This document shows positions 1-64,000 of a stretch of DNA of 64,000 bases, in pieces. Numbering within the stretch: position 1 is the stretch's first letter; each line of letters begins with the position of its first letter. The notes under the pieces are model-generated. The model was not told the origin of the DNA, searched no databases, and worked only from the letters and a program-made list of their open reading frames with translations. A program made the translations under genes and the position numbers. This stretch comes from Periplaneta americana (taxonomy: Eukaryota; Arthropoda; Insecta; Blattodea; Blattidae). The stretch spans positions 62,001 to 126,000 of the forward strand of contig NW_027185529.1 in the NCBI RefSeq assembly GCF_040183065.1, in the 5' to 3' direction.

Positions 1-345
1 TTGCGAGATTTTAACTATATAAATATCAATAAAATCTACAAATTCCGGGGGATTTGTCTAATTTCTTAAAAAAATGTTAAATTCATGTGGAGTCACCTAT
101 ATATAACAACAATTTTACATTCGCATGCAGAGGAATATGGGTTTGTTTGAGAAAATCGTCAAATGGTACAAATCGTCGTTTCTTGCGGTAAAAACACGAT
201 TTTGCTATAAACGTTAATAAAATCTCTATATTCCAACCGATTGTGCTAATTCTTTCACAGAGTGTTTAGTATACATGATTGAACTGTATTATGTCACTGG
301 TTTCGATTTTCCCCACAAAAAAAAAACCTTCAAAAAATTTCGTTT

Positions 346-691
346 TTGCGAGATTTTAACTATATAAATATCAATAAAATCTACAAATTCCGGGGGATTT
401 GTCTAATTTCTTAAGAAAATGTTAAATTCATGTGGATTCACCTATATATAACAACAATTTTACGTTCGCATGCAGAGGAATATGGGTTTGTTTGTGTAAA
501 TCGTCCAATTGTTAAAATCGTCGTTTCTTGCGGTAAAAACACGATTTTGCTATAAACGTTAATAAAATCTCTATATTCCAACCGATTGTGCTAATACTGT
601 GACAGATTGTATAGTATACATGATTGAACTGTATTATATCACTGGTTTCGATTTTCCCCACAAAAAAAAAATCCTCAAAAAAATTTCGTTT
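346..691 (+). repeat. Representative satellite monomer (dimeric)
   Basis: One 346-bp monomer, described as the type unit. It runs TTGCGAG, a TATA-like stretch, CAATAAAATCT, an ATTCC/GATTTGTCTAATTTC segment, CATGTGGATTCACC, CGCATGCAGAGG, then TTGCGGTAAAAACACGATTTT, TATAAACGTTAATAAAATCT, a second ATTCC/GATTGTGCTAAT segment, GTATACATGATTGAACTG, CCCCACA and a variable A-tract. The parts 346-527 and 528-691 start with TTGCG and resemble each other. Comparing 361-410 with 549-598 without gaps gives 32 of 50 identical bases, so the monomer looks like an old dimer. Confidence 0.8.
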
Positions 692-3174
692 TTGCGAGAT
701 TTTAACTATATAAATATCAATAAAATCTACAAATTCCATGGGATTTGTCTAATTTCTTAAAAATAGGTTAAATTCATGTGGATTCACCTATATATAACAA
801 CAATTTCACGTTCGCATGCAGAGAAATATGGGTTTGTTTGTGTAAATCGTCCAATTGTAAAAATCGTCGTTTCTTGCGGTAAAAACACGATTTTGCTATA
901 ATCGTTAATAAAATATCTATATTCCAACCGATTGTGCTAATTCTTTGATAGAGTGTTTAGTATACATGATTGAACTGTATTATGTCATTGGTTTCGATTT
1001 TCCCCACAAAAAAAATCCTTCAAAAAATTTCGTTTTTGCGAGATTTTTAACTATATAAATATCAATAAAATCTACAAATTCAGTGGGATTTGTCTAATTT
1101 CTTAAGAAAATGTTAAATTCATGTGGATTCACCTATATATATCAACAATTTCACGTTCTCATGCAGAGGAATATGGGTTTGTTTGTGTAAATCGTCCAAT
1201 TGTAAAAATCGTCGTTTCTTGCGGTAAAAACACGATTTTGCTATAAACGTTAATAAAATCTCTATATTCCAACCGATTGTGCTAATTCTTTGACAGAGTG
1301 TTTAGTATACATGATTGAACTGTATTATATCACTGGTTTCGATTTTCCCCACAAAAAAAAATCCTTCAAAAAATTTCGTTTTTGCGAGATTTTAACTATA
1401 TAAATATCAATAAAATCTACAAATTCCGTGGGATTTGTCTAATTTCTTAAAAATAAGTTAAATTCATGTGGAGTCACCTGTATATCACAACAATTTCACG
1501 TTCGCATGCAGAGGAATATGGGTTTGTTTGTGTAAATCGTCCAATTGTAAAAATCGTCGATTCTTGCGGTAAAAACACGATTTTGTTATAAACGTTAATA
1601 AAATCTCTATATTCCGACCGATTGTGCTAATTCTTTCACAGAGTGTTCAGTATACATGATTGAACTGTATTATGTCACTGGTTTCGATTTTCCCCACAAA
1701 AAAAAAATCCTTCAAAAAATTTCGTTTTTGCGAGTTTTTTAACTATATAAATATCAATAAAATCTACAAATTCCGTGGGATTTGTCAAATTTCTTAAAAA
1801 AATGTTAAATTCATGTGGATTCACCTATATATCAGAACAATTTCACGTTCGCATGGAGAGGAATATGGGTTTGTTTGTGTAAATCGTCCAATTGTAAAAA
1901 TCGTCGTTTCTTGCGGTAAAAACACGATTTTGCTATAAACGTTAATAAAACCTCTATATTAAAACCGATTGTGCTAATTCTTTCACAGAGTGTTTAGTAT
2001 ACATAATTGAACTGTATTATATCACTGGTTTCGATTTTCCCCACAAAAAAAATCCTTCAAAAAATTTCGTTTTTGCGAGATTTTTAACTATATAAATATC
2101 AATAAAATCTACAAATTCCTTGGGATTTTTCTAATTTCTTAAAAATATGTTAAATTCATGTGGATTCACCTATATATAACAAAAATTTCACGTTCGCATG
2201 CAGAGGAATATGGGTTTGATTGTGTAAATCGTCCAATTGTAAAAATCGTCTTTTCTTGTGGTAAAAACACGATTTTGCTATAATCGTTAATAAAATCTCT
2301 ATATTCCAACCGATTGTGCTAATTCTTTGACAGAGTGTTTAGTATACATGATTGAACTGTATTATATCACTGGTTTCGATTTTCCCCACAAAAAAAAATC
2401 CTTCAAAAAATTTCGTTTTTGCGAGATTTTTAACTATAAAATATCAATAAAATCTACAAATTCCTTGGGATTTGTCTAATTTCTTAAAAATATGTTAAAT
2501 TCATGTGGATTCACCTATATATAACAACAATTTCACGTTCGCATGCAGAGGAATATGGGTTTGTTTGTGTAAATCGTCCAATTGTAAAAATCGTCTTTTC
2601 TTGCGGTAAAAACACGATTTTGCTATAATCGTTAATAAAATCTCTATATTCCAACCGATTGTGCTAATTCTTTGAAAGAGTGTTTAGTATACATGACTGA
2701 ACTGTATTATATCACTGGTTCCGATTTTAACCACAAAAAAAAATCCTTCAAAAAATTTCGTTTTTGCGAGATTTTAACTATATAAATATCAATAAAATCT
2801 ACAAATTCCGGGGGATTTGTCTAATTTCTTAAAAAAATGTTAAATTCATGTGGAGTCACCTATATATAACAACAATTTTACATTCGCATGCAGAGGAATA
2901 TGGGTTTGTTTGAGAAAATCGTCAAATGGTAAAAATCGTCGTTTCTTGCGGTAAAAACACGATTTTGCTATAAACGTTAATAAAATCTCTATATTCCAAC
3001 CGATTGTGCTAATTCTTTCACAGAGTGTTTAGTATACATGATTGAACTGTATTATGTCACTGGTTTCGATTTTCCCCACAAAAAAAAATCCTTCAAAAAA
3101 TTTCGTTTTTGCGAGTTTTTTAACTATATAAATATCAATATAATCTACAAATTCTGTGGGATTTGTCTAATTTC

Positions 3175-3178
3175 TTAA
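3175..3178. other. TTAA target-site duplication, left
   Basis: TTAA directly abuts the left terminal repeat of the transposon and is repeated at its right end. The piggyBac family inserts at TTAA and duplicates it. Removing the element and one TTAA restores a normal satellite monomer. Confidence 0.95.
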
Positions 3179-3190
3179 CCTCCTCTGTCC
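3179..3190 (+). repeat. Left terminal inverted repeat
   Basis: CCTCCTCTGTCC immediately follows the TTAA. It matches the reverse complement of the right end at 10 of 12 positions. A CC start is usual for the piggyBac family. Confidence 0.9.
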
Positions 3191-3191
3191 T

Positions 3192-3215
3192 TAGGTATCA
3201 TATATGATACCTCAG
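3192..3215 (+). repeat. Left subterminal inverted repeat with palindrome
   Basis: A 24-bp sequence whose exact reverse complement lies at 5960-5983. Its core at 3193-3212, AGGTATCATATATGATACCT, is a perfect 20-bp palindrome. It begins only 13 bp from the transposon end. By analogy with the internal repeats of classical piggyBac it is a candidate transposase-binding or synapsis site. That role is inferred. Confidence 0.85.
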
Positions 3216-3246
3216 CTCTTTATTCATTTGTCATTCGTTATGCGCG

Positions 3247-3253
3247 TATATAG
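3247..3253 (+). promoter_or_regulatory. Possible TATA element of the transposase gene
   Basis: TATATAG lies about 127 bp upstream of the proposed start codon, inside the left end of the transposon. The position is plausible for a short 5' untranslated region, but no transcription start can be read from the sequence, and such motifs are common in AT-rich DNA. Confidence 0.25.
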
Positions 3254-3265
3254 ATCCGTGACCTG

Positions 3266-3285
3266 AGGTATCATATTCTATACCA
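3266..3285 (+). repeat. Degenerate copy of the subterminal palindrome
   Basis: AGGTATCATATTCTATACCA resembles the perfect palindrome at 3193-3212, with changes in the right half. It keeps the GGTATCA half-site and an imperfect opposing TATACC. Confidence 0.55.
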
Positions 3286-3335
3286 TCTGCGCTCTCTGCC
3301 TATCATTTGTTTTTGTTAATTTTTCTTGCCACTAG

Positions 3336-3353
3336 ATGTCACCAGCTGATTGA
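3336..3353 (+). other. Possible short upstream ORF
   Basis: ATG followed by four codons and TGA, ending 26 bp before the proposed transposase start. It matters only if the transcript starts upstream of it, which is unknown. Confidence 0.2.
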
Positions 3354-3379
3354 ATTTATCATTTCGTCTAGTCAGCAGC

Positions 3380-3398
3380 ATGGCGGAGAAAAGCAAAG
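3380..3398 (+). CDS. Transposase exon 1 (MAEKSK)
   Basis: The ATG has A at -3 and G at +4, a good animal initiation context. Six codons plus one base precede the donor GGTAATTG. The leftover G joins CC at 3731-3732 to make an alanine codon, which keeps the reading frame of exon 2. I chose this start because the open frame at 3733 has no ATG of its own near its beginning and is preceded by a splice-acceptor sequence. RNA reads would settle it. Confidence 0.65.
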
Positions 3399-3730
3399 GT
3401 AATTGTTGATTTGTTACATGTTAAATGAAAGAACTTTATTTGTTGATACATTCTTACATATTAACAATTCACCTAATAATAATAGAAACATTGTTAGTCT
3501 TTTCAGATAGGCGTACAACACTGTTTTTTATGAGGTATCATTGGTGATACCTTCGGTCACTAGCATGACTTTTTATAAATCCCATTACTATAATTTTGTG
3601 TAGTAGATATGCGTGATATCTGCTATTCCATGCTTGTATAATTCAAAATATCATTCTTTACAATACAGTAATCTTCACTATGTGCTCTATATCATTATGA
3701 GAATGTGAGGTTATGTTTGATTTATTTTAG
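3399..3730 (+). other. Transposase intron 1 (332 bp)
   Basis: It starts with GTAATTG and ends with TTGATTTATTTTAG. It contains another copy of the palindrome (3533-3552). The phase agreement between the flanking exons is the main support. Confidence 0.65.
3533..3552 (+). repeat. Internal copy of the transposon palindrome
   Basis: AGGTATCATTGGTGATACCT has perfect 8-bp arms (AGGTATCA and TGATACCT) around a TTGG centre, so it shares the half-sites of the subterminal palindromes but has a different middle. It lies in intron 1, about 355 bp from the left end. Confidence 0.7.
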
Positions 3731-3944
3731 CCTTGACTACGAACGAAATAACTGAACTTGTCAACAACATCAATCCCAATGATTCTGACTTTGAGATTGA
3801 GGACGAAGAAGACAATGATGAAGATATCATAGTTCCTAGACCTCCAACTCCTGTGATCGATGAAAGTTCATCTGATTCTGAAGATGAGTCGCTAACTCTT
3901 GCGGAGATACAACGAAGGGCCGTTATTTGGAGGCACAAAAATGT
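3731..3944 (+). CDS. Transposase exon 2, acidic N-terminal region
   Basis: Encodes residues 7 (part) to 78 (part). The sequence is rich in Asp, Glu and Ser (EIEDEEDNDED, then DESSSDSEDES), which is typical of the disordered acidic N-terminus of piggyBac-family transposases. It ends at a consensus donor GTAAGT (3945-3950) with two bases of a valine codon left over. Reading on past the donor gives a stop after one codon, which supports splicing there. Confidence 0.85.
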
Positions 3945-4061
3945 GTAAGTTGTTAGAAATTGTGACTAAACATATCTACAGCTACAAATAGAGGGAAATG
4001 GAAATAAGTATTATATTCTTATAAAATTTTGTTTTTTGTTTTTTTTTTTTTTTTTTTTTAG
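3945..4061 (+). other. Transposase intron 2 (117 bp)
   Basis: It begins with the consensus donor GTAAGT and ends in a long T-tract followed by AG at 4060-4061. Joining GT to the A at 4062 gives a valine codon and keeps the frame. An in-frame ATG in the T-tract would start with a run of phenylalanines and is a splice-site artefact rather than a true start. Confidence 0.88.
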
Positions 4062-4884
4062 ATTCCAGTCGCCATTGACTTTTGAGAATGTTTCATCACC
4101 TGAGCTATCAGAAGTAAAGGATCCTTTCGAGTACTTCAGTAAGCACCTGCGACCTTCATTTTTTGATGAAATGGCGCATTTCACAAATTTGAAGCATGTA
4201 TCTCTAACCGGGAAATCTCTAAACTGCACTGGACGAGACATTAGAAAGTTTTGGGGCGTTAGTATTGTAGCTGTGCTCTTGGGGTTCCCAAGACTAAGGA
4301 TGTGTTGGGAGAGCAGAACCCGCTACCCGCTGGTAGCAGAAAATATGGCCAGAGATAGATTTTATTTGCTTCGCAGAAGTATTAAGGTTGTTGATGACAA
4401 CGCTGTTCCTCAGGATCAAAAGCAGGACAGTTTTTGGAAGGTGAGACCAATGTTAAACAGTATTAGAGATGCATGTCTACAACATCGCAGAAATAAAAAT
4501 GTTTCAATTGATGAACAGATGATTCCATTTCACGGACATGTGCGCATGCGCCAATATATCAAAGGAAAGCCACATCCTGTGGGATTGAAGAATTTTGTTT
4601 TGTCAACCCCTTCTGGCCTACCTCTTGACTTCATGATGTATGAAGGAAAAGGAAAGGAAATATATTCAGAGAAAAGCACTGTTCCAGAAAAGCTTGATGT
4701 GGGTGGGCGAGTTGTTCTGAAACTTGCAGATTCTTTGCCACCTGGGTCGTCTATTTTCATAGATAGTTATTTTACGTCTGTTGAGATACTTGATTGCTTG
4801 ATCCTAAGAAACATTTCGGCAACTGGAACTATAATGGTTAGTCGTGTACCAAAAAAGGTTCAATTAAAAATGACACTAATATGA
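4062..4884 (+). CDS. Transposase exon 3, catalytic core before the frameshift
   Basis: Encodes residue 78 onwards. After a short linker come the family's N-terminal fold (FWGVSIVAVLLGFPRLRMCW region) and the catalytic core, with D228 in SIDEQMIPFHGH (codon 4510-4512) and D312 in IFIDSYFTS (codon 4762-4764). The conserved GTIMVSRVPKK stretch follows. The frame then fails: five A's at 4866-4870 lead to TGA at 4882-4884, where one more A would continue into the next conserved segment. This is either a genuine inactivating deletion or a homopolymer error. Confidence 0.93.
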
Positions 4885-5519
4885 AGAAAGAAGGTAGGGG
4901 TAGCTACGATCAAGTGGTGAGAAATGATGACAAACTAGCTCTCCTCAAGTGGTTTGACAATAGGGCCATTTTTCTGGCATCAACAGAATTCGGCGTGGAA
5001 CCAGTAGAAGACTGTAAGCGCTGGTCAAAAAAGGATAAGGCTTACATTCAAATTCCTCACCCTGCAACAGTGAAGATGTACAATTCATACATGGGGGGAG
5101 TTGATCTCTTGGATAGGGTGTTGGGAAAGTATGCCATGAGAGGGAGGACAAAAAAATGGACAATTCGTGTCATTCATCATTTCTTTGATTTTGCTATTGC
5201 AGCAGCCTGGCTTGAATACAGGCAGGCTGCTATGGAATCTGGTTGGGCGAAAAAAGATATTTTATCCTATTTCCTATTTCGGTTTGAGGTGGCAGAAAAA
5301 CTGATATATTTTGATGGAAAGAACGTTGCCATTCATGATGAATTAGACGAACAGGAAGATGAAGAGGAAAAGGAGGATGAAGAAGACAGTGATGGATCTT
5401 CCAGAAGGAAGCGTCCTAGAACACCAAAAGCTTTACCACCCAGGGCTGCTAGATTGGACCAGGCCTTACATTTACCACAGATGACGAATAAAGAGCAAAC
5501 AAATAAGTCGAAATGTTGA
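4872..5519 (+). CDS. Transposase exon 3 after the frameshift
   Basis: Continues the transposase in the other frame. It begins with the conserved MKKEGRGSYDQVVR segment, then KWFDNR, DCKRWSKKDK and YMGGVDLLDR, which holds D426 (5103-5105) and D429 (5112-5114). TKKWTIRVIHHFFDFAI follows, with W444. Then comes an acidic region at about 5337-5396, a basic RRKRPR at 5403-5420 and a linker. The frame stops at TGA 5517-5519, one residue after the first cysteine of the zinc-binding C-terminal domain. The ATG at 4881 lies in frame, but a protein starting there would lack two of the catalytic aspartates. Confidence 0.92.
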   Translation, partial: DTNMKKEGRGSYDQVVRNDDKLALLKWFDNRAIFLASTEFGVEPVEDCKRWSKKDKAYIQIPHPATVKMYNSYMGGVDLLDRVLGKYAMRGRTKKWTIRVIHHFFDFAIAAAWLEYRQAAMESGWAKKDILSYFLFRFEVAEKLIYFDGKNVAIHDELDEQEDEEEKEDEEDSDGSSRRKRPRTPKALPPRAARLDQALHLPQMTNKEQTNKSKC

Positions 5520-5624
5520 GCTCCTGGTTGTAAGTCTTTGACATTTGTCAGATGCACAGAATGCAAAATGTTTTTGTGTTTTACAACAGAACGGAACTGT
5601 TTCTTGGAATTTCATAAAAAATGA
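5520..5624 (+). pseudogene. Remnant of the transposase cysteine-rich domain
   Basis: In the same frame, directly after the TGA, 34 codons read APGCKSLTFVRCTECKMFLC and then end near NCFLEFHKK at TGA 5622-5624. The Cys and His pattern (C, CxxC, C, C, H) is that of the C-terminal cysteine-rich domain that binds the terminal DNA in piggyBac transposases. The stop TGA could derive from CGA (Arg) by one C-to-T change. The clean frame after it suggests a recent mutation. Confidence 0.88.
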
Positions 5625-5794
5625 TTTCTAACATTTCGTTTTTTGTATGTATGGGACATGCAACCACTTATGCATATATACTAAACTATTTTTGGACTAC
5701 TTATAAATTTATATCATCATGAATATTGAGAATTTGACTATATTGTATTTTGTAACACATATTTTGTTTATTTTTATATATAATTAATTATGAT

Positions 5795-5800
5795 AATAAA
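5795..5800 (+). terminator. Candidate polyadenylation signal 1
   Basis: AATAAA about 170 bp after the original end of the transposase reading frame, in AT-rich 3' sequence inside the transposon. Confidence 0.5.
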
Positions 5801-5894
5801 TATATCTAAATGTTCAATTGTATTAAAGTCTGCAATAATGTATTCTACATTTTTTTTTTCAGTATTTGTAAGCAATTTGTATGCATTTTTGTAA

Positions 5895-5900
5895 AATAAA
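5895..5900 (+). terminator. Candidate polyadenylation signal 2
   Basis: AATAAATAAA, about 270 bp after the original reading-frame end and still inside the transposon. Either this or the upstream AATAAA could serve the transcript. Confidence 0.45.
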
Positions 5901-5959
5901 TAAAAGTAAATGGATTCAAAATAGTGTCCTGTAGTTAACCAAAAAGTCCTCATAAAATC

Positions 5960-5983
5960 CTGAGGTATCATATATGATACCTA
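5960..5983 (-). repeat. Right subterminal inverted repeat with palindrome
   Basis: Exact reverse complement of 3192-3215. Its palindromic core lies at 5963-5982, and it ends 129 bp from the right end of the transposon, compared with a 13-bp distance on the left. Confidence 0.85.
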
Positions 5984-6100
5984 GCATAAAACAAGATCAG
6001 AGATCGTGACAAAAATTCTGACTGGTAAAAGTTTGTATTTGTATCACCAAAAACCCAATAAATGATATTTAAACACTTTTATAATTGTAAACTTGTCTCG

Positions 6101-6112
6101 GGACTGAAGAGG
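6101..6112 (-). repeat. Right terminal inverted repeat
   Basis: GGACTGAAGAGG, which reads CCTCTTCAGTCC on the minus strand and pairs with the left end at 10 of 12 positions. It directly abuts TTAA. Confidence 0.9.
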
Positions 6113-6116
6113 TTAA
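6113..6116. other. TTAA target-site duplication, right
   Basis: Second copy of the TTAA. Satellite resumes straight after it with GAAAATGTTAAATTC, in register with the sequence left of the element. Confidence 0.95.
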
Positions 6117-9100
6117 GAAAATGTTAAATTCATGTCGATTCACCTATATATAACAACAATTTTACGTTCGCATGCAGAGGAATATGGGTTTGTTTGTGTA
6201 AATCGTCCAATTGTTAAAATCGTCGTTTCTTGCGGTAAAAACACGATTTTGCTATAAACGTTAATAAAATCTCTATATTCCAACCGATTGTGCTAATACT
6301 GTGACAGATTGTATAGTATACATGATTGAACTGTATTATATCACTGGTTTCGATTTTCCCCACAAAAAAAAAAATCCTCAAAAAAATTTCGTTTTTGCGA
6401 GATTTTAACTATATAAATATCAATAAAATCTACAAATTCCGTGGGATTTGTCTAATTTCTTAAAAATAGGTTAAATTCATGTGGATTCACCTATATATAA
6501 CAACAATTTCACGTTCGCATGCAGAGGAATATGGGTTTGTTTGTGTAAATCGTCCAATTGTAAAAATCGTCGTTTCTTGCGGTAAAAACACGATTTTGCT
6601 ATAATCGTTAATAAAATATCTATATTCCAACCGATTGTGCTAATTCTTTGATAGAGTGTTTAGTATACATGATTGAACTGTATTATGTCATTGGTTTCGA
6701 TTTTCCCCACAAAAAAAATCCTTCAAAAAATTTCGTTTTTGCGAGATTTTTAACTATATAAATATCAATAAAATCTACAAATTCTGTGGGATTTGTCTAA
6801 TTTCTTAAGAAAATGTTAAATTCATGTGGATTCACCTATATATATCAACAATTTCACGTTCGCATGCAGAGGAATATGGGTTTGTTTGTGTAAATCGTCC
6901 AATTGTAAAAATCGTCGTTTCTTGCGGTAAAAACACGATTTTGCTATAAACGTTAATAAAATCTCTATATTCCAACCGATTGTGCTAATTCTTTGACAGA
7001 GTGTTTAGTATACATGATTGAACTGTATTATATCACTGGTTTCGATTTTCCCCACAAAAAAAAATCCTTCAAAAAATTTCGTTTTTGCGAGATTTTAACT
7101 ATATAAATATCAATAAAATCTACAAATTCCGTGGGATTTGTCTAATTTCTTAAAAATAAGTTAAATTCATGTGGAGTCACCTGTATATAACAACAATTTC
7201 ACGTTCGCATGCAGAGGAATATGGGTTTGTTTGTGTAAATCGTCCAATTGTAAAAATCGTCATTTCTTGCGGTAAAACCACGATTTTGCTATAAACGTTA
7301 ATAAAACCTCTATATTCCAACCGATTGTGCTAATTCTGTGACAGATTGTTTAGTATACATGATTGAACTGTATTATATCACTGGTTTCGATTTTCCCCAC
7401 AAAAAAAAATCCTCAAAAAAATTTCGTTTTTGCGAGATTTTAACTATATAAATATCAATATAATCTACAAATTCCATGGGATTTGTGTAATTTCTTAAGA
7501 AAATGTTAAATTGATGTGGATTCACCTATATATATCAACAATTTCACGTTCGCATGCAGAGGAATATGGGTTTGTTTGTGTAAATCGTCCAATTGTTAAA
7601 ATCGTCGTTTCTTGCGGTAAAAACACGATTTTGCTATAAATGTTAATAAAATCTCTATATTCCAACCGATTGTGCTAATTCTTTGACAGAGTGTTTAGTA
7701 TATATGATTGAACTGTATTATATCACTGGTTTCGATTTTCCCCACAAAAAAAAAATCCTTCAAAAAATTTCGTTTTTGCGAGATTTTAACTATATAAATA
7801 TCAATAAAATCTACAAATTCCGTGGGATTTGTCTAATTTCTTAAAAATATGTTAAATTCATGTGGAGTCACCTGTATATCACAACAATTTCACGTTCGCA
7901 TGCAGAGGAATATGGGTTTGTTTGTGTAAATCGTCCAATTGTAAAAATCGTCGATTCTTGCGGTAAAAACACGATTTTGTTATAAACGTTAATAAAATCT
8001 CTATATTCCAACCGATTGTGCTAATTCTTTCACAGAGTGTTTAGTATACATGATTGAACTGTATTATGTCACTGGTTTCGATTTTCCCCACAAAAAAAAT
8101 CCTTCAAAAAATTTCGTTTTTGCGAGTTTTTTAACTATATAAATATCAATAAAATCTACAAATTCCGTGGGATTTGTCAAATTTCTTAAAAAAATGTTAA
8201 ATTCATGTGGATTCACCTATAAATCAGAACAATTTCACGTTTGCATGGAGAGGAATATGGGTTTGTTTGTGTAAATCGTCCAATTGTAAAAATCGTCGTT
8301 TCTTGCGGTAAAAACACGATTTTGCTATAAACGTTAAGAAAACCTCTATATTCCAACCGATTGTGCTAATTCTTTCACAGAGTGTTTAGTATACATAATT
8401 GAACTGTATTATATCACTGGTTTCGATTTTCCCCACAAAAAAAATCCTTCAAAAAATTTCGTTTTTGCGAGATTTTTAACTATATAAATATATATAAAAT
8501 CTACAAATTCCTTGGGATTTGTCTAATTTCTTAAAAATACGTTAAATTCATGTGGATTCACCTGTATATAACAACAATTTCACGTTCGCATGCAGAGGAA
8601 TATGGGTTTGATTGTGTAAATCGTCCAATTGTAAAAATCGTCTTTTCTTGCGGTAAAAACATGATTTTGCTATAATCGTTAATAAAATCTCTATATTCCA
8701 ACCGATTGTGCTAATTCTTTGACAGAGTGTTTAGTATACATGATTGAACTGTATTATATCACTGGTTTCGATTTTCCCCTCAAAAAAAATCCTTCAAAAA
8801 ATTTCGTTTTTGCGAGATTTTTAACTATATAAATATCAATAAAATTTACAAATTCCTTGGGATTTGTCTAATTTCTTAAAAATATGTTAAATTCATGTGG
8901 ATTCACCTATATATAACAACAATTTCACGTTCGCATGCAGAGGAATATGGGTTTGTTTGTGTAAATCGTCCAATTGTAAAAATCGTCTTTTCTTGCGGTA
9001 AAAACACGGTTTTCCTATAATCGTTAATAAAATCTCTATATTCCAAGCGATTGTGCTAATTCTTTGACAGAGTGTTTAGTATACATGACTGAACTGTATT

Positions 9101-9847
9101 ATATCACAGGTTTCGATTTTCCCCACAAAAAAAAATCCTTCAAAAAATTTCGTTTTTGCGAGATTTTAACTATATAAATATCAATAAAATCTACAAACTC
9201 CGTGGGATTTGTCTAATTTCTTTAAAAAATGTTAAATTCATGTGGAGTCACCTATATATAACAACAATTTCACATTCGCATGCAGAGGAATATGGGTTTG
9301 TTTGAGAAAATCGTCAAATGGTAAAAATCGTCGTTTCTTGCGGTAAAAACACGATTTTGCTATAAACGTTAATAAAATCTCTATATTCCAACCGATTGTG
9401 CTAATTCTTTCACAGAGTGTTTAGTATACATGATTGAACTGTATTATGTCACTGGTTACGATTTTCCGATCAAAAAAAAATCCTTCAAAAAATTTCGTTT
9501 TTGCGAGTTTTTTAACTATATAAATATCAATATAATCTACAAATTCCGTGGGATTTGTCTAATTTCTTAAGAAAATGTTAAATTCATGTGGATTCACCTA
9601 TATATAACAACAATTTTACGTTCGCATGCAGAGGAATATGGGTTTGTTTGTGTAAATCGTCCAATTGTTAAAATCGTCGTTTCTTGCGGTAAAAACACGA
9701 TTTTGCTATAAACGTTAATAAAATCTCTATATTCCAACCGATTGTGCTAATTCTGTGACAGATTGTTTAGTATACATGATTGAACTGTATTATATCACTG
9801 GTTTCGATTTTCCCCACAAAAAAAAAATCCTTCAAAAAATTTCGTTT
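6117..9847 (+). repeat. 345-bp satellite, HOR1 copy 1, right part
   Basis: The rest of monomer 10 and monomers 11-20 of the first HOR1 copy. Without the transposon and one TTAA the copy is 6,909 bp, which agrees with the 6,910-bp copy that follows. Landmarks are a GTCATTT monomer with AAACCAC, a monomer with TATATATGATTG, a pair of TCAGAAC and GTCTTTT monomers, and CCAAGCG at about 9044. No genes are seen. Confidence 0.95.
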
Positions 9848-12800
9848 TTGCGAGATTTTAACTATATAAATATCAATAAAATCTACAAATTCCGGGGGAT
9901 TTGTCTAATTTCTTAAAAAAATGTTAAATTCATGTGGAGTCACCTATATATAACAACAATTTTACATTCGCATGCAGAGGAATATGGGTTTGTTTGAGAA
10001 AATCGTCAAATGGTAAAAATCGTCGTTTCTTGCGGTAAAAACACGATTTTGCTATAAACGTTAATAAAATCTCTATATTCCAACCGATTGTGCTAATTCT
10101 TTCACAGAGTGTTTAGTATACATGATTGAACTGTATTATGTCACTGGTTTCGATTTTCCCCACAAAAAAAAATCCTTCAAAAAATTTCGTTTTTGCGAGA
10201 TTTTAACTATATAAATATCAATAAAATCTACAAATTCCGGGGGATTTGTCTAATTTCTTAAGAAAATGTTAAATTCATGTGGATTCACCTATATATAACA
10301 ACAATTTTACGTTCGCATGCAGAGGAATATGGGTTTGTTTGTGTAAATCGTCCAATTGTTAAAATCGTCGTTTCTTGCGGTAAAAACACGATTTTGCTAT
10401 AAACGTTAATAAAATCTCTATATTCCAACCGATTGTGCTAATACTGTGACAGATTGTATAGTATACATGATTGAACTGTATTATATCACTGGTTTCGATT
10501 TTCCCCACAAAAAAAAAAATCCTCAAAAAAATTTCGTTTTTGCGAGATTTTAACTATATAAATATCAATAAAATCTACAAATTCCATGGGATTTGTCTAA
10601 TTTCTTAAAAATAGGTTAAATTCATGTGGATTCACCTATATATAACAACAATTTCACGTTCGCATGCAGAGAAATATGGGTTTGTTTGTGTAAATCGTCC
10701 AATTGTAAAAATCGTCGTTTCTTGCGGTAAAAACACGATTTTGCTATAATCGTTAATAAAATATCTATATTCCAACCGATTGTGCTAATTCTTTGATAGA
10801 GTGTTTAGTATACATGAATGAACTGTATTATGTCATTGGTTTCGATTTTCCCCACAAAAAAAATCCTTCAAAAAATTTCGTTTTTGCGAGATTTTTAACT
10901 ATATAAATATCAATAAAATCTACAAATTCAGTGGGATTTGTCTAATTTCTTAAGAAAATGTTAAATTCATGTGGATTCACCTATATATATCAACAATTTC
11001 ACGTTCTCATGCAGAGGAATATGGGTTTGTTTGTGTAAATCGTCCAATTGTAAAAATCGTCGTTTCTTGCGGTAAAAACACGATTTTGCTATAAACGTTA
11101 ATAAAATCTCTATATTCCAACCGATTGTGCTAATTCTTTGACAGAGTGTTTAGTATACATGATTGAACTGTATTATATCACTGGTTTCGATTTTCCCCAC
11201 AAAAAAAAATCCTTCAAAAAATTTCGTTTTTGCGAGATTTTAACTATATAAATATCAATAAAATCTACAAATTCCGTGGAATTTGTCTAATTTCTTAAAA
11301 ATAAGTTAAATTCATGTGGAGTCACCTGTATATCACAACAATTTCACGTTCGCATGCAGAGGAATATGGGTTTGTTTGTGTAAATCGTCCAATTGTAAAA
11401 ATCGTCGATTCTTGCGGTAAAAACACGATTTTGTTATAAACGTTAATAAAATCTCTATATTCCGACCGATTGTGCTAATTCTTTCACAGAGTGTTCAGTA
11501 TACATGATTGAACTGTATTATGTCACTGGTTTCGATTTTTCCCACAAAAAAAAAATCCTTCAAAAAATTTCGTTTTTGCGAGTTTTTTAACTATATAAAT
11601 ATCAATAAAATCTACAAATTCCGTGGGATTTGTCAAATTTCTTAAAAAAATGTTAAATTCATGTGGATTCAACTATATATCAGAACAATTTCACGTTCGC
11701 ATGGAGAGGAATATGGGTTTGTTTGTGTAAATCGTCCAATTGTAAAAATCGTCGTTTCTTGCGGTAAAAACACGATTTTGCTATAAACGTTAATAAAACC
11801 TCTATATTAAAACCGATTGTGCTAATTCTTTCACAGAGTGTTTAGTATACATAATTGAACTGTATTATATCACTGGTTTCGATTTTCCCCACAAAAAAAA
11901 TCCTTCAAAAAATTTCGTTTTTGCGAGATTTTTAACTATATAAATATCAATAAAATCTACAAATTCCTTGGGATTTTTCTAATTTCTTAAAAATATGTTA
12001 AATTCATGTGGATTCACCTATATATAACAAAAATTTCACGTTCGCATGCAGAGGAATATGGGTTTGATTGTGTAAATCGTCCAATTGTAAAAATCGTCTT
12101 TTCTTGCGGTAAAAACACGATTTTGCTATAATCGTTAATAAAATCTCTATATTCCAACCGATTGTGCTAATTCTTTGACAGAGTGTTTAGTATACATGAT
12201 TGAACTGTATTATATCACTGGTTTCGATTTTCCCCACAAAAAAAAATCCTTCAAAAAATTTCGTTTTTGCGAGATTTTTAACTATAAAATATCAATAAAA
12301 TCTACAAATTCCTTGGGATTTGTCTAATTTCTTAAAAATATGTTAAATTCATGTGGATTCACCTATATATAACAACAATTTCACGTTCGCATGCAGAGGA
12401 ATATGGGTTTGTTTGTGTAAATCGTCCAATTGTAAAAATCGTCTTTTCTTGCGGTAAAAACACGATTTTGCTATAATCGTTAATAAAATCTCTATATTCC
12501 AACCGATTGTGCTAATTCTTTGAAAGAGTGTTTAGTATACATGACTGAACTGTATTATATCACTGGTTCCGATTTTAACCACAAAAAAAAATCCTTCAAA
12601 AAATTTCGTTTTTGCGAGATTTTAACTATATAAATATCAATAAAATCTACAAATTCCGGGGGATTTGTCTAATTTCTTAAAAAAATGTTAAATTCATGTG
12701 GAGTCACCTATATATAACAACAATTTTACATTCGCATGCAGAGGAATATGGGTTTGTTTGAGAAAATCGTCAAATGGTAAAAATCGTCGTTTCTTGCGGT

Positions 12801-15800
12801 AAAAACACGATTTTGCTATAAACGTTAATAAAATCTCTATATTCCAACCGATTGTGCTAATTCTTTCACAGAGTGTTTAGTATACATGATTGAACTGTAT
12901 TATGTCACTGGTTTCGATTTTCCCCACAAAAAAAAATCCTTCAAAAAATTTCGTTTTTGCGAGTTTTTTAACTATATAAATATCAATATAATCTACAAAT
13001 TCTGTGGGATTTGTCTAATTTCTTAAGAAAATGTTAAATTCATGTCGATTCACCTATATATAACAACAATTTTACGTTCGCATGCAGAGGAATATGGGTT
13101 TGTTTGTGTAAATCGTCCAATTGTTAAAATCGTCGTTTCTTGCGGTAAAAACACGATTTTGCTATAAACGTTAATAAAATCTCTATATTCCAACCGATTG
13201 TGCTAATACTGTGACAGATTGTATAGTATACATGATTGAACTGTATTATATCACTGGTTTCGATTTTCCCCACAAAAAAAAAAATCCTCAAAAAATTTCG
13301 TTTTTGCGAGATTTTAACTATATAAATATCAATAAAATCTACAAATTCCGTGGGATTTGTCTAATTTCTTAAAAATAGGTTAAATTCATGTGGATTCACC
13401 TATATATAACAACAATTTCACGTTCGCATGCAGAGGAATATGGGTTTGTTTGTGTAAATCGTCCAATTGTAAAAATCGTTGTTTCTTGCGGTAAAAACAC
13501 GATTTTGCTATAATCGTTAATAAAATATCTATATTCCAACCGATTGTGCTAATTCTTTGATAGAGTGTTTAGTATACATGATTGAACTGTATTATGTCAT
13601 TGGTTTCGATTTTCCCCACAAAAAAAATCCTTCAAAAAATTTCGTTTTTGCGAGATTTTTAACTATATAAATATCAATAAAATCTACAAATTCTGTGGGA
13701 TTTGTCTAATTTCTTAAGAAAATGTTAAATTCATGTGGATTCACCTATATATATCAACAATTTCACGTTCGCATGCAGAGGAATATGGGTTTGTTTGTGT
13801 AAATCGTCCAATTGTAAAAATCGTCGTTTCTTGCGGTAAAAACACGATTTTGCTATAAACGTTAATAAAATCTCTATATTCCAACCGATTGTGCTAATTC
13901 TTTGACAGAGTGTTTAGTATACATGATTGAACTGTATTATATCACTGGTTTCGATTTTCCCCACAAAAAAAAATCCTTCAAAAAATTTCGTTTTTGCGAG
14001 ATTTTAACTATATAAATATCAATAAAATCTACAAATTCCGTGGGATTTGTCTAATTTCTTAAAAATAAGTTAAATTCATGTGGAGTCAATTGTATATAAC
14101 AACAATTTCACGTTCGCATGCAGAGGAATATGGGTTTGTTTGTGTAAATCGTCCAATTGTAAAAATCGTCATTTCTTGCGGTAAAACCACGATTTTGCTA
14201 TAAACGTTAATAAAACCTCTATATTCCAACCGATTGTGCTAATTCTGTGACAGATTGTTTAGTATACATGATTGAACTGTATTATATCACTGGTTTCGAT
14301 TTTCCCCACAAAAAAAAATCCTCAAAAAAATTTCGTTTTTGCGAGATTTTAACTATATAAATATCAATATAATCTACAAATTCCATGGGATTTGTGTAAT
14401 TTCTTAAGAAAATGTTAAATTGATGTGGATTCACCTATATATATCAACAATTTCACGTTCGCATGCAGAGGAATATGGGTTTGTTTGTGTAAATCGTCCA
14501 ATTGTTAAAATCGTCGTTTCTTGCGGTAAAAACACGATTTTGCTATAAATGTTAATAAAATCTCTATATTCCAACCGATTGTGCTAATTCTTTGACAGAG
14601 TGTTTAGTATATATGATTGAACTGTATTATATCACTGGTTTCGATTTTCCCCACAAAAAAAAAATCCTTCAAAAAATTTCGTTTTTGCGAGATTTTAACT
14701 ATATAAATATCAATAAAATCTACAAATTCCGTGGGATTTGTCTAATTTCTTAAAAATATGTTAAATTCATGTGGAGTCACCTGTATATCACAACAATTTC
14801 ACGTTCGCATGCAGAGGAATATGGGTTTGTTTGTGTAAATCGTCCAATTGTAAAAATCGTCGATTCTTGCGGTAAAAACACGATTTTGTTATAAACGTTA
14901 ATAAAATCTCTATATTCCAACCGATTGTGCTAATTCTTTCACAGAGTGTTTAGTATACATGATTGAACTGTATTATGTCACTGGTTTCGATTTTCCCCAC
15001 AAAAAAAATCCTTCAAAAAATTTCGTTTTTGCGAGTTTTTTAACTATATAAATATCAATAAAATCTACAAATTCCGTGGGATTTGTCAAATTTCTTAAAA
15101 AAATGTTAAATTCATGTGGATTCACCTATAAATCAGAACAATTTCACGTTTGCATGGAGAGGAATATGGGTTTGTTTGTGTAAATCGTCCAATTGTAAAA
15201 ATCGTCGTTTCTTGCGGTAAAAACACGATTTTGCTATAAACGTTAAGAAAACCTCTATATTCCAACCGATTGTGCTAATTCTTTCACAGAGTTTTTAGTA
15301 TACATAATTGAACTGTATTATATCACTGGTTTCGATTTTCCCCACAAAAAAAATCCTTCAAAAAATTTCGTTTTTGCGAGATTTTTAACTATATAAATAT
15401 ATATAAAATCTACAAATTCCTTGGGATTTGTCTAATTTCTTAAAAATACGTTAAATTCATGTGGATTCACCTGTATATAACAACAATTTCACGTTCGCAT
15501 GCAGAGGAATATGGGTTTGATTGTGTAAATCGTCCAATTGTAAAAATCGTCTTTTCTTGCGGTAAAAACATGATTTTGCTATAATCGTTAATAAAATCTC
15601 TATATTCCAACCGATTGTGCTAATTCTTTGACAGAGTGTTTAGTATACATGATTGAACTGTATTATATCACTGGTTTCGATTTTCCCCACAAAAAAAATC
15701 CTTCAAAAAATTTCGTTTTTGCGAGATTTTTAACTATATAAATATCAATAAAATTTACAAATTCCTTGGGATTTGTCTAATTTCTTAAAAATATGTTAAA

Positions 15801-56468: not shown

Positions 56469-59400
56469 TTGCGAGATTTTAACTATATAAATATCAATAA
56501 AATCTACAAATTCCGGGGGATTTGTCTAATTTCTTAAAAAAATGTTAAGTTCATGTGGAGTCACCTATATATAACAACAATTTCACATTCGCATGCAGAG
56601 GAATATGGGTTTGTTTGAGAAAATCGTCAAATGGTAAAAATCGTCGTTTCTTGCGGTAAAAACACGATTTTGCTATAAACGTTAATAAAATCTCTATATT
56701 CCAACCGATTGTGCTAATTCTTTCACAGAGTGTTTAGTATACATGATTGAACTGTATTATGTCACTGGTTTCGATTTTCCCCACAAAAAAAAATCCTTCA
56801 AAAAATTTCGTTTTTGCGAGTTTTTTAACTATATAAATATCCATATAATCTACAAATTCCGTGGGATTTGTCTAATTTCTTAAAAAAATGTTAAATTCAT
56901 GTGGATTCACCTATATATAACAACAATTTCACGTTCGCATGCAGAGGAATATGGGTTTGTTTGTGTAAATCGTCCAATTGTAAAAATCGTCATTTCTTGC
57001 GGTAAAAACACGATTTTGATATAAACGTTAATAAAATCTCTATATTCCAACCGATTGTGCTAATTCTGTGACAGATTGTTTAGTATACATGATTGAACTG
57101 TATTATATCACTGGTTTCGATTTTCCCCACAAAAAAAAATCCTCAAAAAAATTTCGTTTTTGCGAGATTTTAACTATATAAATATCAATAAAATCTACAA
57201 ATTACGTGGGATTTGTCTAATTTCTTAAAAATATGTTAAATTCATGTGGAGTCACCTGTATATCACAACAATTTCACGTTCGCATGCAGAGGAATATGGG
57301 TTTGTTTGTGTAAATCGTCCAATTGTAAAAATCGTCGATTCTTGCGGTAAAAACACGATTTTGTTATAAACGTTAATAAAATCTCTATATTCCAACCGAT
57401 TGTGCTAATTCTTTCACAGAGTGTTTAGTATACATATTTGAACTTTATTATATCACTGGTTTCGATTTTCCCCACAAAAAAAAATCCTTCAAGAAATTTC
57501 GTTTTTGCGAGATTTTAACTATATAAATATCAATAAAATCTACAAATTACGTGGGATTTGTCTAATTTCTTAAAAATATGTTAAATTCATGTGGATTCAC
57601 CTACATATAACAACAATTTTACGTTCGCATGCAGAGGAATATGGGTTTGTTTGGGTAAATCGTCCAATTGTAAAAATCGTCGTTTCTTGCGGTAAAAACA
57701 CGATTTTGCTATAAACGTTAATAAAATCTCTATATTCCAACCGATTGTGCTAATTCTGTGACAGATTGTTTAGTATACATGATTGAACTGTATTATATCA
57801 CTGGTTTCGATTTTCCCCACAAAAAAAAAATCCTCAAAAAAATTTCGTTTTTGCGAGATTTTAACTATATAAATATCAATAAAATCTACAAATTCCTTGG
57901 GATTTGTCTAATTTCTTAAAAATATGTTAAATTCATGTGGATTCACCTATATATAACAACAATTTCACGTTCGCATGCAGAGGAATATGGGTTTGTTTGT
58001 GTAAATCGTCCAATTGTAAAAATCGTCGTTTCTTGCGGTAAAAACACGATTTTGCTATAAACGTTAATAAAATATCTATATTCCAACCGATTGTGCTAAT
58101 TCTTTGATAGAGTGTTTAGTATACATGATTGAACTGTATTATGTCACAGGTTTCGATTTTCCCCACAAAAAAAATCCTTCAAAAAATTTCGTTTTTGCGA
58201 GATTTTTAACTATATAAATATCAATAAAATCTACAAATTCAGTGGGATTTGTCTAATTTCTTAAGAAAATGTTAAATTCATGTGGATTCACCTATATATA
58301 TATCAACAATTTCACGTTCGCATGCAGAGGAATATGGGTTTGTTTGTGTAAATCGTCCAATTGTAAAAATCGTCGTTTCTTGCGGTAAAAACACGATTTT
58401 GCTATAAACGTTAATAAAATCTCTATATTCCAACCGATTGTGCTAATTCTTTGACAGAGTGTTTAGTATACATGATTGAACTGTATTATATCACTGGTTT
58501 CGATTTTCCCCACAAAAAAAAATCCTTCAAAAAATTTCGTTTTTGCGAGATTTTAACTATATAAATATCAATAAAATCTACAAATTACGTGGGATTTGTC
58601 TAATTTCTTAAAAATATGTTAAATTCATGTGGAGTCACCTGTATATCACAACAATTTCACGTTCGCATGCAGAGGAATATGGGTTTGTTTGTGTAAATCG
58701 TCCAATTGTAAAAATCGTCGATTCTTGCGGTAAAAACACGATTTTGTTATAAACGTTAATAAAATCTCTATATTCCAACCGATTGTGCTAATTCTTTCAC
58801 AGAGTGTTTAGTATACATGATTGAACTGTATTATGTCACTGGTTTCGATTTTCCCCACAAAAAAAATCCTTCAAAAAATTTCGTTTTTGCGAGTTTTTTA
58901 ACTATATAAATATCAATAAAATCTACAAATTCCGTGGGATTTGTCAAATTTCTTAAAAAAATGTTAAATTCATGTGGATTCACCTATATATCAGAACAAT
59001 TTCACGTTCGCATGGAGAGGAATATGGGTTTGTTTGTGTAAATCGTCCAATTGTAAAAATCGTCGTTTCTTGCGGATAAACACGATTTTGCTATAAACGT
59101 TAATAAAACCTCTATATTAAAACCGATTGTGCTAATTCTTTCACAGAGTGTTTAGTATACATAATTGAACTGTATTATATCACTGGTTTCGATTTTCCCC
59201 ACAAAAAAAATCCTTCAAAAATTTTCGTTTTTGCGAGATTTTTAACTATATAAATATCAATAAAATCTAGAAATTCCTTGGGATTTGTCTAATTTCTTAA
59301 AAATATGTTAAATTCATGTGGATTCACCTATATATAACAACAATTTCACGTTCGCATGCAGAGGAATATGGGTTTGTTTGTGTAAATCGTCCAATTGTAA

Positions 59401-60613: not shown

Positions 60614-63600
60614 TTGCGAGATTTTAACTATATAAATATCAATAAAATCTACAAATTCCGGGGGATTTGTCTAATTTCTTAAAAAAATGTTAAGTTCATG
60701 TGGAGTCACCTATATATAACAACAATTTCACATTCGCATGCAGAGGAATATGGGTTTGTTTGAGAAAATCGTCAAATGGTAAAAATCGTCGTTTCTTGCG
60801 GTAAAAACACGATTTTGCTATAAACGTTAATAAAATCTCTATATTCCAACCGATTGTGCTAATTCTTTCACAGAGTGTTTAGTATACATGATTGAACTGT
60901 ATTATGTCACTGGTTTCGATTTTCCCCACAAAAAAAAATCCTTCAAAAAATTTCGTTTTTGCGAGTTTTTTAACTATATAAATATCAATATAATCTACAA
61001 ATTCCGTGGGATTTGTCTAATTTCTTAAAAAAATGTTAAATTCATGTGGATTCACCTATATATAACAACAATTTCACGTTCGCATGCAGAGGAATATGGG
61101 TTTGTTTGTGTAAATCGTCCAATTGTAAAAATCGTCATTTCTTGCGGTAAAAACACGATTTTGCTATAAACGTTAATCAAATCTCTATATTCCAATCGAT
61201 TGTGCTAATTCTGTGACAGATTGTTTAGTATACATGATTGAACTGTATTATATCACTGGTTTCGATTTTCCCCACAAAAAAAAATCCTCAAAAAAATTTC
61301 GTTTTTGCGAGATTTTAACTATATAAATATCAATAAAATCTACAAATTACGTGGGATTTGTCTAATTTCTTAAAAATATGTTAAATTCATGTGGAGTCAC
61401 CTGTATATCACAACAATTTCACGTTCGCATGCAGAGGAATATGGGTTTGTTTGTGTAAATCGTCCAATTGTAAAAATCGTCGATTCTTGCGGTAAAAACA
61501 CGATTTTGTTATAAACGTTAATAAAATCTCTATATTCCAACCGATTGTGCTAATTCTTTCACAGAGTGTTTAGTATACATATTTGAACTTTATTATATCA
61601 CTGGTTTCGATTTTCCCCACAAAAAAAAATCCTTCAAGAAATTTCGTTTTTGCGAGATTTTAACTATATAAATATCAATAAAATCTACAAATTCCTTGGG
61701 ATTTGTCTAATTTCTTAAAAAAATGTTAAATTCATGTGGATTCACCTACATATAACAACAATTTTACGTTCGCATGCAGAGGAATATGGGTTTGTTTGTG
61801 TAAATCGTCCAATTGTAAAAATCGTCGTTTCTTGCGGTAAAAACACGATTTTGCTATAAACGTTAATAAAATCTCTATATTCCAACCGATTGTGCTAATT
61901 CTGTGACAGATTGTTTAGTATACATGATTGAACTGTATTATATCACTGGTTTCGATTTTCCCCACAAAAAAAAATCCTCAAATAAAATTTCGTTTTTGCG
62001 AGATTTTAACTATATAAATATCAATAAAATCTACAAATTCCTTGGGATTTGTCTAATTTATTAAAAATATGTTAAATTCATGTGGATTCACCTATATATA
62101 ACAACAATTTCACGTTCGCATGCAGAGGAATATGGGTTTGTTTGTGTAAATCGTCCAATTGTAAAAATCGTCGTTTCTTGCGGTAAAAACACGATTTTGC
62201 TATAAACGTTAATAAAATATCTATATTCCAACCGATTGTGCTAATTCTTTGATAGAGTGTTTAGTATACATGATTGAACTGTATTATGTCACAGGTTTCG
62301 ATTTTCCCCACAAAAAAAATCCTTCAAAAAATTTCGTATTTGCGAGATTTTTAACTATATAAATATCAATAAAATCTACAAATTCAGTGGGATTTGTCTA
62401 ATTTCTTAAGAAAATGTTAAATTCATGTGGATTCACCTATATATATCAACAATTTCACGCTCGCATGCAGAGGAATATGGGTTTGTTTGTGTAAATCGTC
62501 CAATTGTAAAAATCGTCGTTTCTTGCGGTAAAAACACGATTTTGCTATAAACGTTAATAAAATCTCTATATTCCAACCGATTGTGCTAATTCTTTGACAG
62601 AGTGTTTAGTATACATGATTGAACTCTATTATATCACTGGTTTCGATTTTCCCCACAAAAAAAAATCCTTCAAAAAATTTCGTTTTTGCGAGATTTTAAC
62701 TATATAAATATCAATAAAATCTACAAATTACGTGGGATTTGTCTAATTTCTTAAAAATATGTTAAATACATGTGGAGTCACCTGTATATCACAACAATTT
62801 CACGTTCGCATGCAGAGGAATATGGGTTTGTTTGTGTAAATCGTCCAATTGTAAAAATCGTCGATTCTTGCGGTAAAAACACGATTTTGTTATAAACGTT
62901 AATAAAATCTCTATATTCCAACCGATTGTGCTAATTCTTTCACAGAGTGTTTAGTATACATGATTGAACTGTATTATGTCACTGGTTTCGATTTTCCCCA
63001 CAAAAAAAATCCTTCAAAAAATTTCATTTTTGCGAGTTTTTTAACTATATAAATATCAATAAAATCTACAAATTCCGTGGGATTTGTCAAATTTCTTAAA
63101 AAAATGTTAAATTCATGTGGATTCACCTATATATAACAACAATTTCACGTTCGCATGCAGAGGAATATGGGTTTGTTTGTGTAAATCGTCCAATTGTAAA
63201 AATCGTCTTTTCTTGCGGTAAAAACACGATTTTGCTATAATCGTTAATAAAATCTCTATATTGCAACCGATTGTGCTAATTCTTTGACAGAGTGTTTAGT
63301 ATACATGACTGAACTGTATTATATCACTGGTTTCGATTTTCCCCACAAAAAAAAATCCTTCAAAAAATTTCGTTTTTGCGAGATTTTAACTATATAAATA
63401 TCAATAAAATCTACAAATTCCATGGGATTTGTCTAATTTCTTAAAAAAATGTTAAATTCATGTGGAGTCACCTATATATAACAACAATTTCACATTAGCA
63501 TGCAGAGGAATATGGGTTTGTTTGAGAAAATCGTCAAATGGTAAAAATCGTCATTTCTTGCGGTAAAAACACGATTTTGCTATAAACGTTAATAAAATCT

Positions 63601-64000
63601 CTATATTCCAACCGATTGTGCTAATTCTTTCACAGAGTGTTTAGTATACATGATTGAACTGTATTATGTCACTGGTTTCGATTTTCCCCACAAAAAAAAA
63701 TCCTTCAAAAAATTTCGTTTTTGCGAGTTTTTTAACTATATAAATATCAATATAATCTACAAATTCCGTGGGATTTGTCTAATTTCTTAAGAAAATGTTA
63801 AATTCATGTGGATTCACCTATATATAACAACAATTTCACGTTCGCATGCAGAGGAATATGGGTTTGTTTGTGTAAATCGTCCAATTGTAAAAATCGTCTT
63901 TTCTTGCGGTAAAAACACGATTTTGCTATAATCGTTAATAAAATCTCTATATTCCAACCGATTGTGCTAATTCTTTGACAGATTGTTTAGTATACATGAT
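60614..64000 (+). repeat. 345-bp satellite, HOR4 copy B, one monomer deleted, cut by window end
   Basis: Monomers 1-7 match HOR4 copy A. The next monomer (about 63030-63374) is a hybrid whose left part (GTCAAATTTC) is monomer 8 and whose right part (GTCTTTT, GACTGAAC) is monomer 9. After it, landmarks are one monomer early: CCATGGG is at 59621 and 63420, 3,799 bp apart instead of 4,145. The array runs off the window. Confidence 0.9.

What the first reader, a model, noticed from the sequence alone, without database searches (positions are those of the whole stretch)
1..64000. Four HOR regimes in one array: 20, 19, 18 and 12 monomers
Landmark spacing gives repeat units of 6,910, about 6,563, 6,215 and 4,145 bp along the window. 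The first three differ by one monomer each, and HOR2 and HOR3 open with the same monomer types. This fits stepwise gain or loss of single monomers by unequal exchange, followed by local spread of each new unit. Such layered HORs are well known in primate alpha satellite; their presence in another satellite is worth documenting.
Basis: seen in the sequence. Interest (0 to 1): 0.7.

Follow-up and report, generated by a model that had tools for sequence, protein, structure and literature searches.

The report
Scrambled nine-type satellite repeat array
This stretch of animal DNA is one 345-base sequence repeated head to tail; two of the four reported long repeat lengths hold up, as recent local copies, and they lie over an older cycle of about nine repeat types that two other sampled arrays of the same genome share.

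Summary
The window is one head-to-tail array of 177 near-345-bp monomers, broken only by a piggyBac-like transposon at a TTAA site (3175-6116). Two of the four claimed regimes are real tandem higher-order repeats (HORs): a 20-mer (2.45 copies, 9-19873) and a 19-mer (2.2 copies, 25050-39558). The 18 and 12 "periods" are not tandem units: each rests on one pair of contiguous 7-monomer blocks spaced by 18 or 12. The rest of the contig (140.8 kb) and samples of two other arrays show many other spacings (7, 11, 23, 24, 43, 44 and more). The 20-mer and 19-mer are not one-monomer variants of each other. The order lies deeper: about nine monomer types follow a cycle. Types and order fixed on this contig alone predict two other contigs: 48 of 84 and 56 of 85 steps go forward by one (shuffles average 10-12%), and of 40,320 possible orders this one ranks 6th and 1st there. 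Best reading: an old HOR of about 9-10 monomers, shared by several arrays, scrambled by in-register unequal exchange, with young local duplications on top. This resembles "cascading" alpha-satellite HORs; HORs in insect satellites are already in print. Centromere function is untested.

The parts
1..64000 (+). 345-bp satellite array, 177 monomers head to tail; none of ten anchor words of the monomer occurs on the minus strand
9..19873 (+). 20-mer HOR region, 2.45 copies: copy 1 9-9855 (holds the transposon), copy 2 9856-16765, partial copy 3 16766-19873 (9 monomers)
   Evidence: one search runs at lag 20 and 40; copy 1 v 2 has 12 mismatches in about 6.9 kb
25050..39558 (+). 19-mer HOR region, 2.2 copies: copies start at 25050, 31612 and 38175 (the third has 4 monomers)
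   Evidence: lag-19 run of 23 monomers; copy 1 v 2 99.54% by substitutions
37485..39903 (+). 7-monomer block copied once at a spacing of 18 monomers (first copy); overlaps the third, partial 19-mer copy
   Evidence: the rest of the spacing does not match in register
43700..46119 (+). second copy of the 7-monomer block at lag 18
56477..58895 (+). 7-monomer block copied once at a spacing of 12 monomers (first copy)
60622..63038 (+). second copy of the 7-monomer block at lag 12
40939..42663 (+).
   Evidence: 99.5% alike; its length is within the shuffle range
3175..6116 (+). piggyBac-like transposon with TTAA at both ends (one TTAA belongs to the target); present in 20-mer copy 1 (m10) only, site empty in copy 2 (m30)
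   Evidence: sequence; junctions; PF13843 2.8e-41 and 7.6e-9 in two frames; m10 v m30 98.6% after the join
4060..5519 (+). transposase reading frame, broken by a change of frame near 4882

Best explanation
A 345-bp satellite of an animal genome. Shown here: about nine monomer types, whose consensuses differ from the common one at 4-10 positions each, follow a preferred cyclic order, written A(A)-B-F-G-C-I-D-E-H, in this contig and in samples of two other arrays; on top lie young copies of blocks of varied length (tandem units of 20, 19, 11 and 7 monomers in this contig; other lags elsewhere) that the sampled arrays do not share. Inferred: an ancestral HOR of about 9-10 monomers (about 3.1-3.5 kb) spread among arrays, then in-register unequal exchange repeatedly duplicated and deleted blocks of whole monomers, blurring the cycle and now and then making a block tandem. 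The 20-mer and 19-mer are two such recent products, each containing about two blurred turns of the cycle. The 18 and 12 spacings are chance distances between copies of short blocks.
For: Monomer spacing stays 343-348 bp throughout the window, so exchange keeps register. Strict test: types clustered on C48 alone, order chosen on C48 alone by trying all 40,320 cyclic orders, then every monomer assigned: +1 steps 234 of 396 in C48 (fitted), 48 of 84 in C5 and 56 of 85 in C62; 2000 shuffles each average 0.10-0.12 and reach at most 0.20 (C5) and 0.25 (C62); the C48 order is 6th best of 40,320 on C5 and the single best on C62. Counting each 5-type context once (joint clustering) still gives 0.53-0.60. 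The C5 string fits the C48 transition matrix better than any of 2000 shuffles (-159.8 v best -288.8 log2 units). Longest run shared at >=98.5% is 6 monomers for C48-C5 and 3 for C48-C62 and C5-C62, while runs within C48 reach 29. Lags differ by array: C48 20, 19, 44, 18, 11, 23, 7; C5 43, 24, 19; C62 18, 38, 56, 30, 8. A simulation from a perfect 10-mer array gives 0.71-0.72 +1 steps after 100 and 0.58-0.60 after 200 random block duplications or deletions per 397 monomers, against 0.61 observed in C48.
Against: Types differ by only 4-10 of 345 positions and the median margin of an assignment is about 2%, so labels are noisy. Near-complete cycles are rare: 2 in C48, none in the window, C5 or C62 under a strict pattern, so an intact ancestral HOR is inferred, not seen. 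In my first tests clustering was joint and I had seen all three strings before writing the order down; one search mends this, but the alignment columns are still common. C5 and C62 were sampled for 30 kb each and the fourth contig, C31, not at all. None of the three C5 runs is as long as its lag, so C5 shows block copies rather than complete tandem units. Gene conversion or reinsertion of circles could also move blocks. The simulation was matched afterwards in its number of events, and at 200 events its share of steps 0-2 (0.75-0.76) is below the observed 0.81. Shuffle runs in C48 reach 8, so C48 runs of 8 or fewer monomers are weak by length alone.
Confidence: 0.75

Rival explanations
1. Stepwise ladder: a 20-mer lost one monomer to give a 19-mer, then an 18-mer, and each unit spread locally.
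For: 20, 19 and 18 follow each other along the window; the 19-mer and the 18-block share an opening block of 6-7 monomers; with gaps, 11 of 18 monomers of the two 18-blocks match in order.
Against: Only 4-5 of 19 monomers match colinearly at >=98.5% between 20-mer and 19-mer copies; the 18-block is not tandem; divergences do not order by size; with the further lags of the contig counted, three consecutive values occur in 34% (8 lags) to 53% (10 lags) of draws, 16% for 6.
Confidence: 0.07
2. No ancestral HOR: the cyclic order comes from a small founder block that was copied among arrays, and random local duplication made the rest.
For: Only two near-complete cycles in 397 monomers; monomers of the three arrays are on average 95-96% alike.
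Against: No run over 6 monomers is shared between the sampled arrays at >=98.5%, so the common order is older than the arrays' private units.
Confidence: 0.15
3. Assembly artefact: the tandem copies are mis-joined or duplicated sequence in an unplaced satellite contig.
For: C48 is a small contig of 140.8 kb filled by satellite; no reads could be inspected.
Against: Copies 1 and 2 differ by 12 (20-mer) and 30 (19-mer) substitutions and, in the 20-mer, by a whole transposon insertion; similar local block copies occur in an array inside C5, a 197.6-Mb contig.
Confidence: 0.08

Closest known systems
Cascading HORs of primate alpha satellite (PMC11050224: abstract and passages; PMC11630843: passages)
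   Same: Units contain the same monomer type more than once and are built of a few ordered types: the human chromosome 15 15-mer uses 9 types, with 4-, 7- and 11-monomer subfragments
   Different: There 429 and 164 copies of a unit; here about two. Alpha monomers within a unit differ by about 20-40%, here by about 5%. 345-bp monomer instead of 171 bp
HOR-forming satellites of the Drosophila ananassae subgroup (PMC11917152, passages incl. part of the abstract)
   Same: Complex insect satellites in long arrays with HOR structure, monomers 99-411 bp
   Different: Sequences were not compared here, and the internal order of types there was not looked up
Ancestral pentamer of human alpha satellite (title seen in a reference list; content recalled)
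   Same: A short ancestral cycle of types shared among longer chromosome-specific units
   Different: Five types there (recalled), about nine here with about 60% of steps in order
PMsat of Peromyscus (PMC6733818, passages)
   Same: Also a 344-346 bp satellite
   Different: Rodent satellite; its two published primers match the window at best at 12 of 18 and 14 of 21 bases, and this genome has an invertebrate mitochondrial code

Membership tests
Higher-order repeat (20-mer and 19-mer) | Multi-monomer unit repeated in tandem with copies far more alike than monomers within the unit | tested here: met
   Copies 99.83% (20-mer) and 99.54% (19-mer) by substitutions; monomers within a unit 95.2% and 95.1%
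Higher-order repeat (18 and 12) | Whole unit repeated at least twice in tandem | tested here: not met
   7 of 18 and 7 of 12 monomers match in register; whole 18 v next 18 is 96.7%
Cascading HOR | Monomer types recur inside one unit | tested here: met
   20-mer BCIDEHAABCIDCDEHAABF and 19-mer EHAABFBGCFGCDEHBFGC as type strings
Cascading HOR | Canonical unit present in many copies (as in the published arrays) | tested here: not met
   2.45 and 2.2 copies
Primate alpha satellite | 171-bp monomer, CENP-B box in a subset | tested here: not met
   345-bp monomer; CENP-B core (motif recalled) 0 matches on both strands of the window
Centromeric satellite | Binds the centromeric histone | not testable with these tools
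   Only indirect: one array lies inside a 197.6-Mb contig at about 122.3 Mb
piggyBac transposon (insert) | TTAA target, terminal inverted repeats, DDE_Tnp_1_7 transposase | tested here: met
   TTAA at both ends; imperfect inverted ends read by eye; PF13843; transposase broken by a change of frame

The most novel reading that the evidence does not exclude
One ancestral nine-type cycle underlies the arrays of this satellite throughout a 3.2-Gb invertebrate genome, and the degree of blurring plus young private units makes it a natural clock for in-register unequal exchange, with the transposon and its empty site as an independent time mark.
Probability: 0.5. Interest if true: 0.5.

Novelty: new member of a known kind. 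Interest (0 to 1): 0.35.

Why it matters
It shows that repeat lengths read off landmark spacing can turn random block copies into apparent "regimes", and that a better description, types in cyclic order, carries over between arrays. If it holds genome-wide, the rate of scrambling and the size distribution of exchanges could be measured in a satellite outside primates.

Tried and rejected
Fuzzy-regex cutting of monomers found only 76 and 80 of 177 and was replaced by a vote of ten anchors. A dimeric (odd/even) structure was considered because even lags score slightly higher in the window (0.9516 v 0.9500); the difference is small and I dropped it. PMsat of Peromyscus was considered because of its length and dropped. 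The search for other copies of the transposon did not complete, so its activity and age are open. A genome-wide count of monomers by pattern did not complete either. Paper searches, listings only: 345-bp satellite with HORs (1 paper), 345-bp satellite in insects (3 papers), cockroach satellites (2 papers, 12 of 541 shown) gave no title or abstract describing this satellite; some searches were for HORs in general. Rows dropped before counts: the last partial monomer of the window (177 to 176); in C48, 405 anchor positions became 398 starts after removing one negative start and merging six short gaps, hence 397 monomers, a few of which keep extra bases; C5 86 to 85 and C62 87 to 86. In one search, steps touching types outside the nine were dropped (360 of 396 kept in C48, 160 of 175 in the window, 82 of 84 in C5, 73 of 85 in C62); drop none, but there 19 of 397 C48 monomers outside the nine clusters are assigned to the nearest type. 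C31, the fourth contig with matches, was not analysed; one search scored 40 of 1,143 candidates.

Full report
What was checked. The window is bases 62001-126000 of contig C48 (140,825 bp) of a 3.23-Gb genome in 91 contigs. The genome is an invertebrate's: a mitochondrial COX1 reads openly with TGA as Trp and AGA as Ser (table 5) but has five stops in the vertebrate code; two copies of it are 15,580 bp apart on C78. From memory a large-genome insect such as a cockroach would fit; no call tests this.

The array. After cutting out a transposon in silico, 177 monomer starts were found, all spacings 343-348 bp. The array fills C48 apart from that transposon and a few irregular monomers outside the window, and none of the ten anchor words occurs on the minus strand. 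Monomers of the window average 95.1% identity.

The four regimes. A monomer-by-monomer identity matrix was searched for diagonal runs at >=98.5%, single dips allowed. Lag 20: m1-29 match m21-49, and m1-9 match m41-49, hence 49 monomers or 2.45 copies of a 20-mer. Lag 19: m65-87 match m84-106, hence 42 monomers or 2.2 copies of a 19-mer. The longest run in 30 shuffles of monomer order was 7. Lag 18 and lag 12 hold for 7 contiguous monomers each, flanked on both sides by lower identity (0.948 and 0.962 at lag 18, 0.971 and 0.957 at lag 12). Their length alone does not exceed the shuffles; their identity (99.4%) says that they are real copies, but of a block, not of an 18-mer or 12-mer unit. Against this, a gapped comparison of the two 18-blocks finds 11 of 18 monomers in order at >=98.5%, so more than the 7 is shared, out of register. 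Other blocks, at lags 8, 22, 25 and 57, also lie in the window; each is 7 monomers or shorter, within the shuffle range by length.

Beyond the window. Over 397 C48 monomers further runs appear: lag 44 (16 monomers), 18 (13), 11 (11, a complete tandem), 23 (10), and 45, 34, 33, 30 and 7 (7 each) (shuffles reach 8). In 30 kb of the C5 array the longest runs are at lags 43, 24 and 19 (26, 19 and 17 monomers; 43 = 24 + 19). In 30 kb of C62 they are at 18, 38, 56, 30 and 8; the lag-18 run there is 19 monomers long, a complete tandem 18-mer, though not the one of the window. So unit lengths are local and varied.

Stepwise loss tested. If the 19-mer were the 20-mer less one monomer, about 19 monomers should match in order. 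Over the four pairs of copies the best cyclic alignment gives 4-5 at >=98.5% and 7-9 at >=97.5% (100 shuffles each: means 5.6-6.7, maxima 7-9), while two 20-mer copies give 20 of 20. The small excess fits the common cycle below; several other pairs of blocks show the like. The first 19-mer copy and the 18-block give 9 and 11 (shuffle maximum 10), from the shared opening block plus recurrent types. Copy divergence: 20-mer copies 1 and 2, 12 mismatches in about 6.9 kb (0.17%), copy 3 0.6% (9 monomers); 19-mer copies 1 and 2 0.46%, copy 3 0.9-1.0% (4 monomers); the 18- and 12-blocks 0.58%; the 11-mer and 7-mer elsewhere in C48 0.08%. No ordering by size.

The deeper order. Joint clustering of the monomers of C48, C5 and C62 at 3.3% gives nine common types, which read as strings follow A(A)-B-F-G-C-I-D-E-H. 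That order was written down after seeing all three strings, so I repeated the test strictly: types clustered on C48 alone, the best of all 40,320 cyclic orders chosen on C48 alone, every monomer then assigned. The same cycle came out. Steps of +1: 234 of 396 in C48, 48 of 84 in C5, 56 of 85 in C62; 2000 shuffles average 10-12% and reach at most 20% and 25% in the two test arrays. Of the 40,320 orders, 5 do better on C5 (best possible 51 of 84) and none on C62. Counting each 5-type context once leaves 53-60% (joint types), so copying within arrays does not explain it. Yet no run longer than 6 monomers is shared between these arrays at >=98.5%. So the cycle is common and older; the long units are private and younger. 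Against this: type differences are small (4-10 positions), and near-complete cycles are rare (2 in C48, none in the window).

Mechanism. Shown: register is kept in the window, blocks of whole monomers are copied, the cycle is common to three contigs. Inferred: unequal exchange within arrays as the cause, and an intact ancestral HOR. A simulation starting from a perfect 10-mer array passes the observed order (0.61) between 100 and 200 random block duplications or deletions per 397 monomers (0.71-0.72 and 0.58-0.60); this shows sufficiency only, the number of events having been matched afterwards.

The transposon. TTAA at 3175 and 6113 bounds a 2.9-kb element with a piggyBac-type transposase (PF13843) broken by a change of frame near 4882. 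It lies in monomer 10, in copy 1 of the 20-mer; copy 2 has an uninterrupted monomer 30, and the partial copy 3 does not reach that monomer. Most simply it landed after the duplication that made copies 1 and 2.

Comparison. HORs with repeated types inside the unit are known as cascading HORs in primates (PMC11050224; PMC11630843), and HORs in insect satellites are in print (PMC11917152; Tribolium madens in PMC13081366; Chrysolina dimers and trimers in PMC8122249; passages read in each). The finding is a further case of a known kind. No description of this 345-bp satellite turned up in the listings; that is a limited search.

Noticed in passing
3175-6116: piggyBac-like element in a satellite monomer with the empty site kept in the neighbouring 20-mer copy; palindromic GGTATCATATATGATACC motifs lie near both ends (read).
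   Followed up: partly
G000:C48, about 11905, 36565, 39072 and 42957 (outside the window): Monomers lengthened by 146 bp (once) and 88 bp (three times, copied along with a 7-monomer block): the rare cases where register is lost. Spacing is also irregular at about 52029-52706 and 55122-55795.
   Followed up: no
G000:C74 and C75 (COX1, copies 8,322 bp apart): A second, quite different COX1 that reads without stops in the standard code, in tandem copies: possibly the mitochondrial genome of another organism such as a parasite, or a contaminant. The kind of organism is a guess.
   Followed up: partly
G000:C1-C17: Many nuclear fragments of COX1, a number of them with TAA or TAG stops besides TGA, as expected of mitochondrial DNA copied into the nucleus.
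   Followed up: no
G000:C62:29001-59000: A complete tandem 18-mer (19 monomers at lag 18), different from the 18-spaced block of the window.
   Followed up: no
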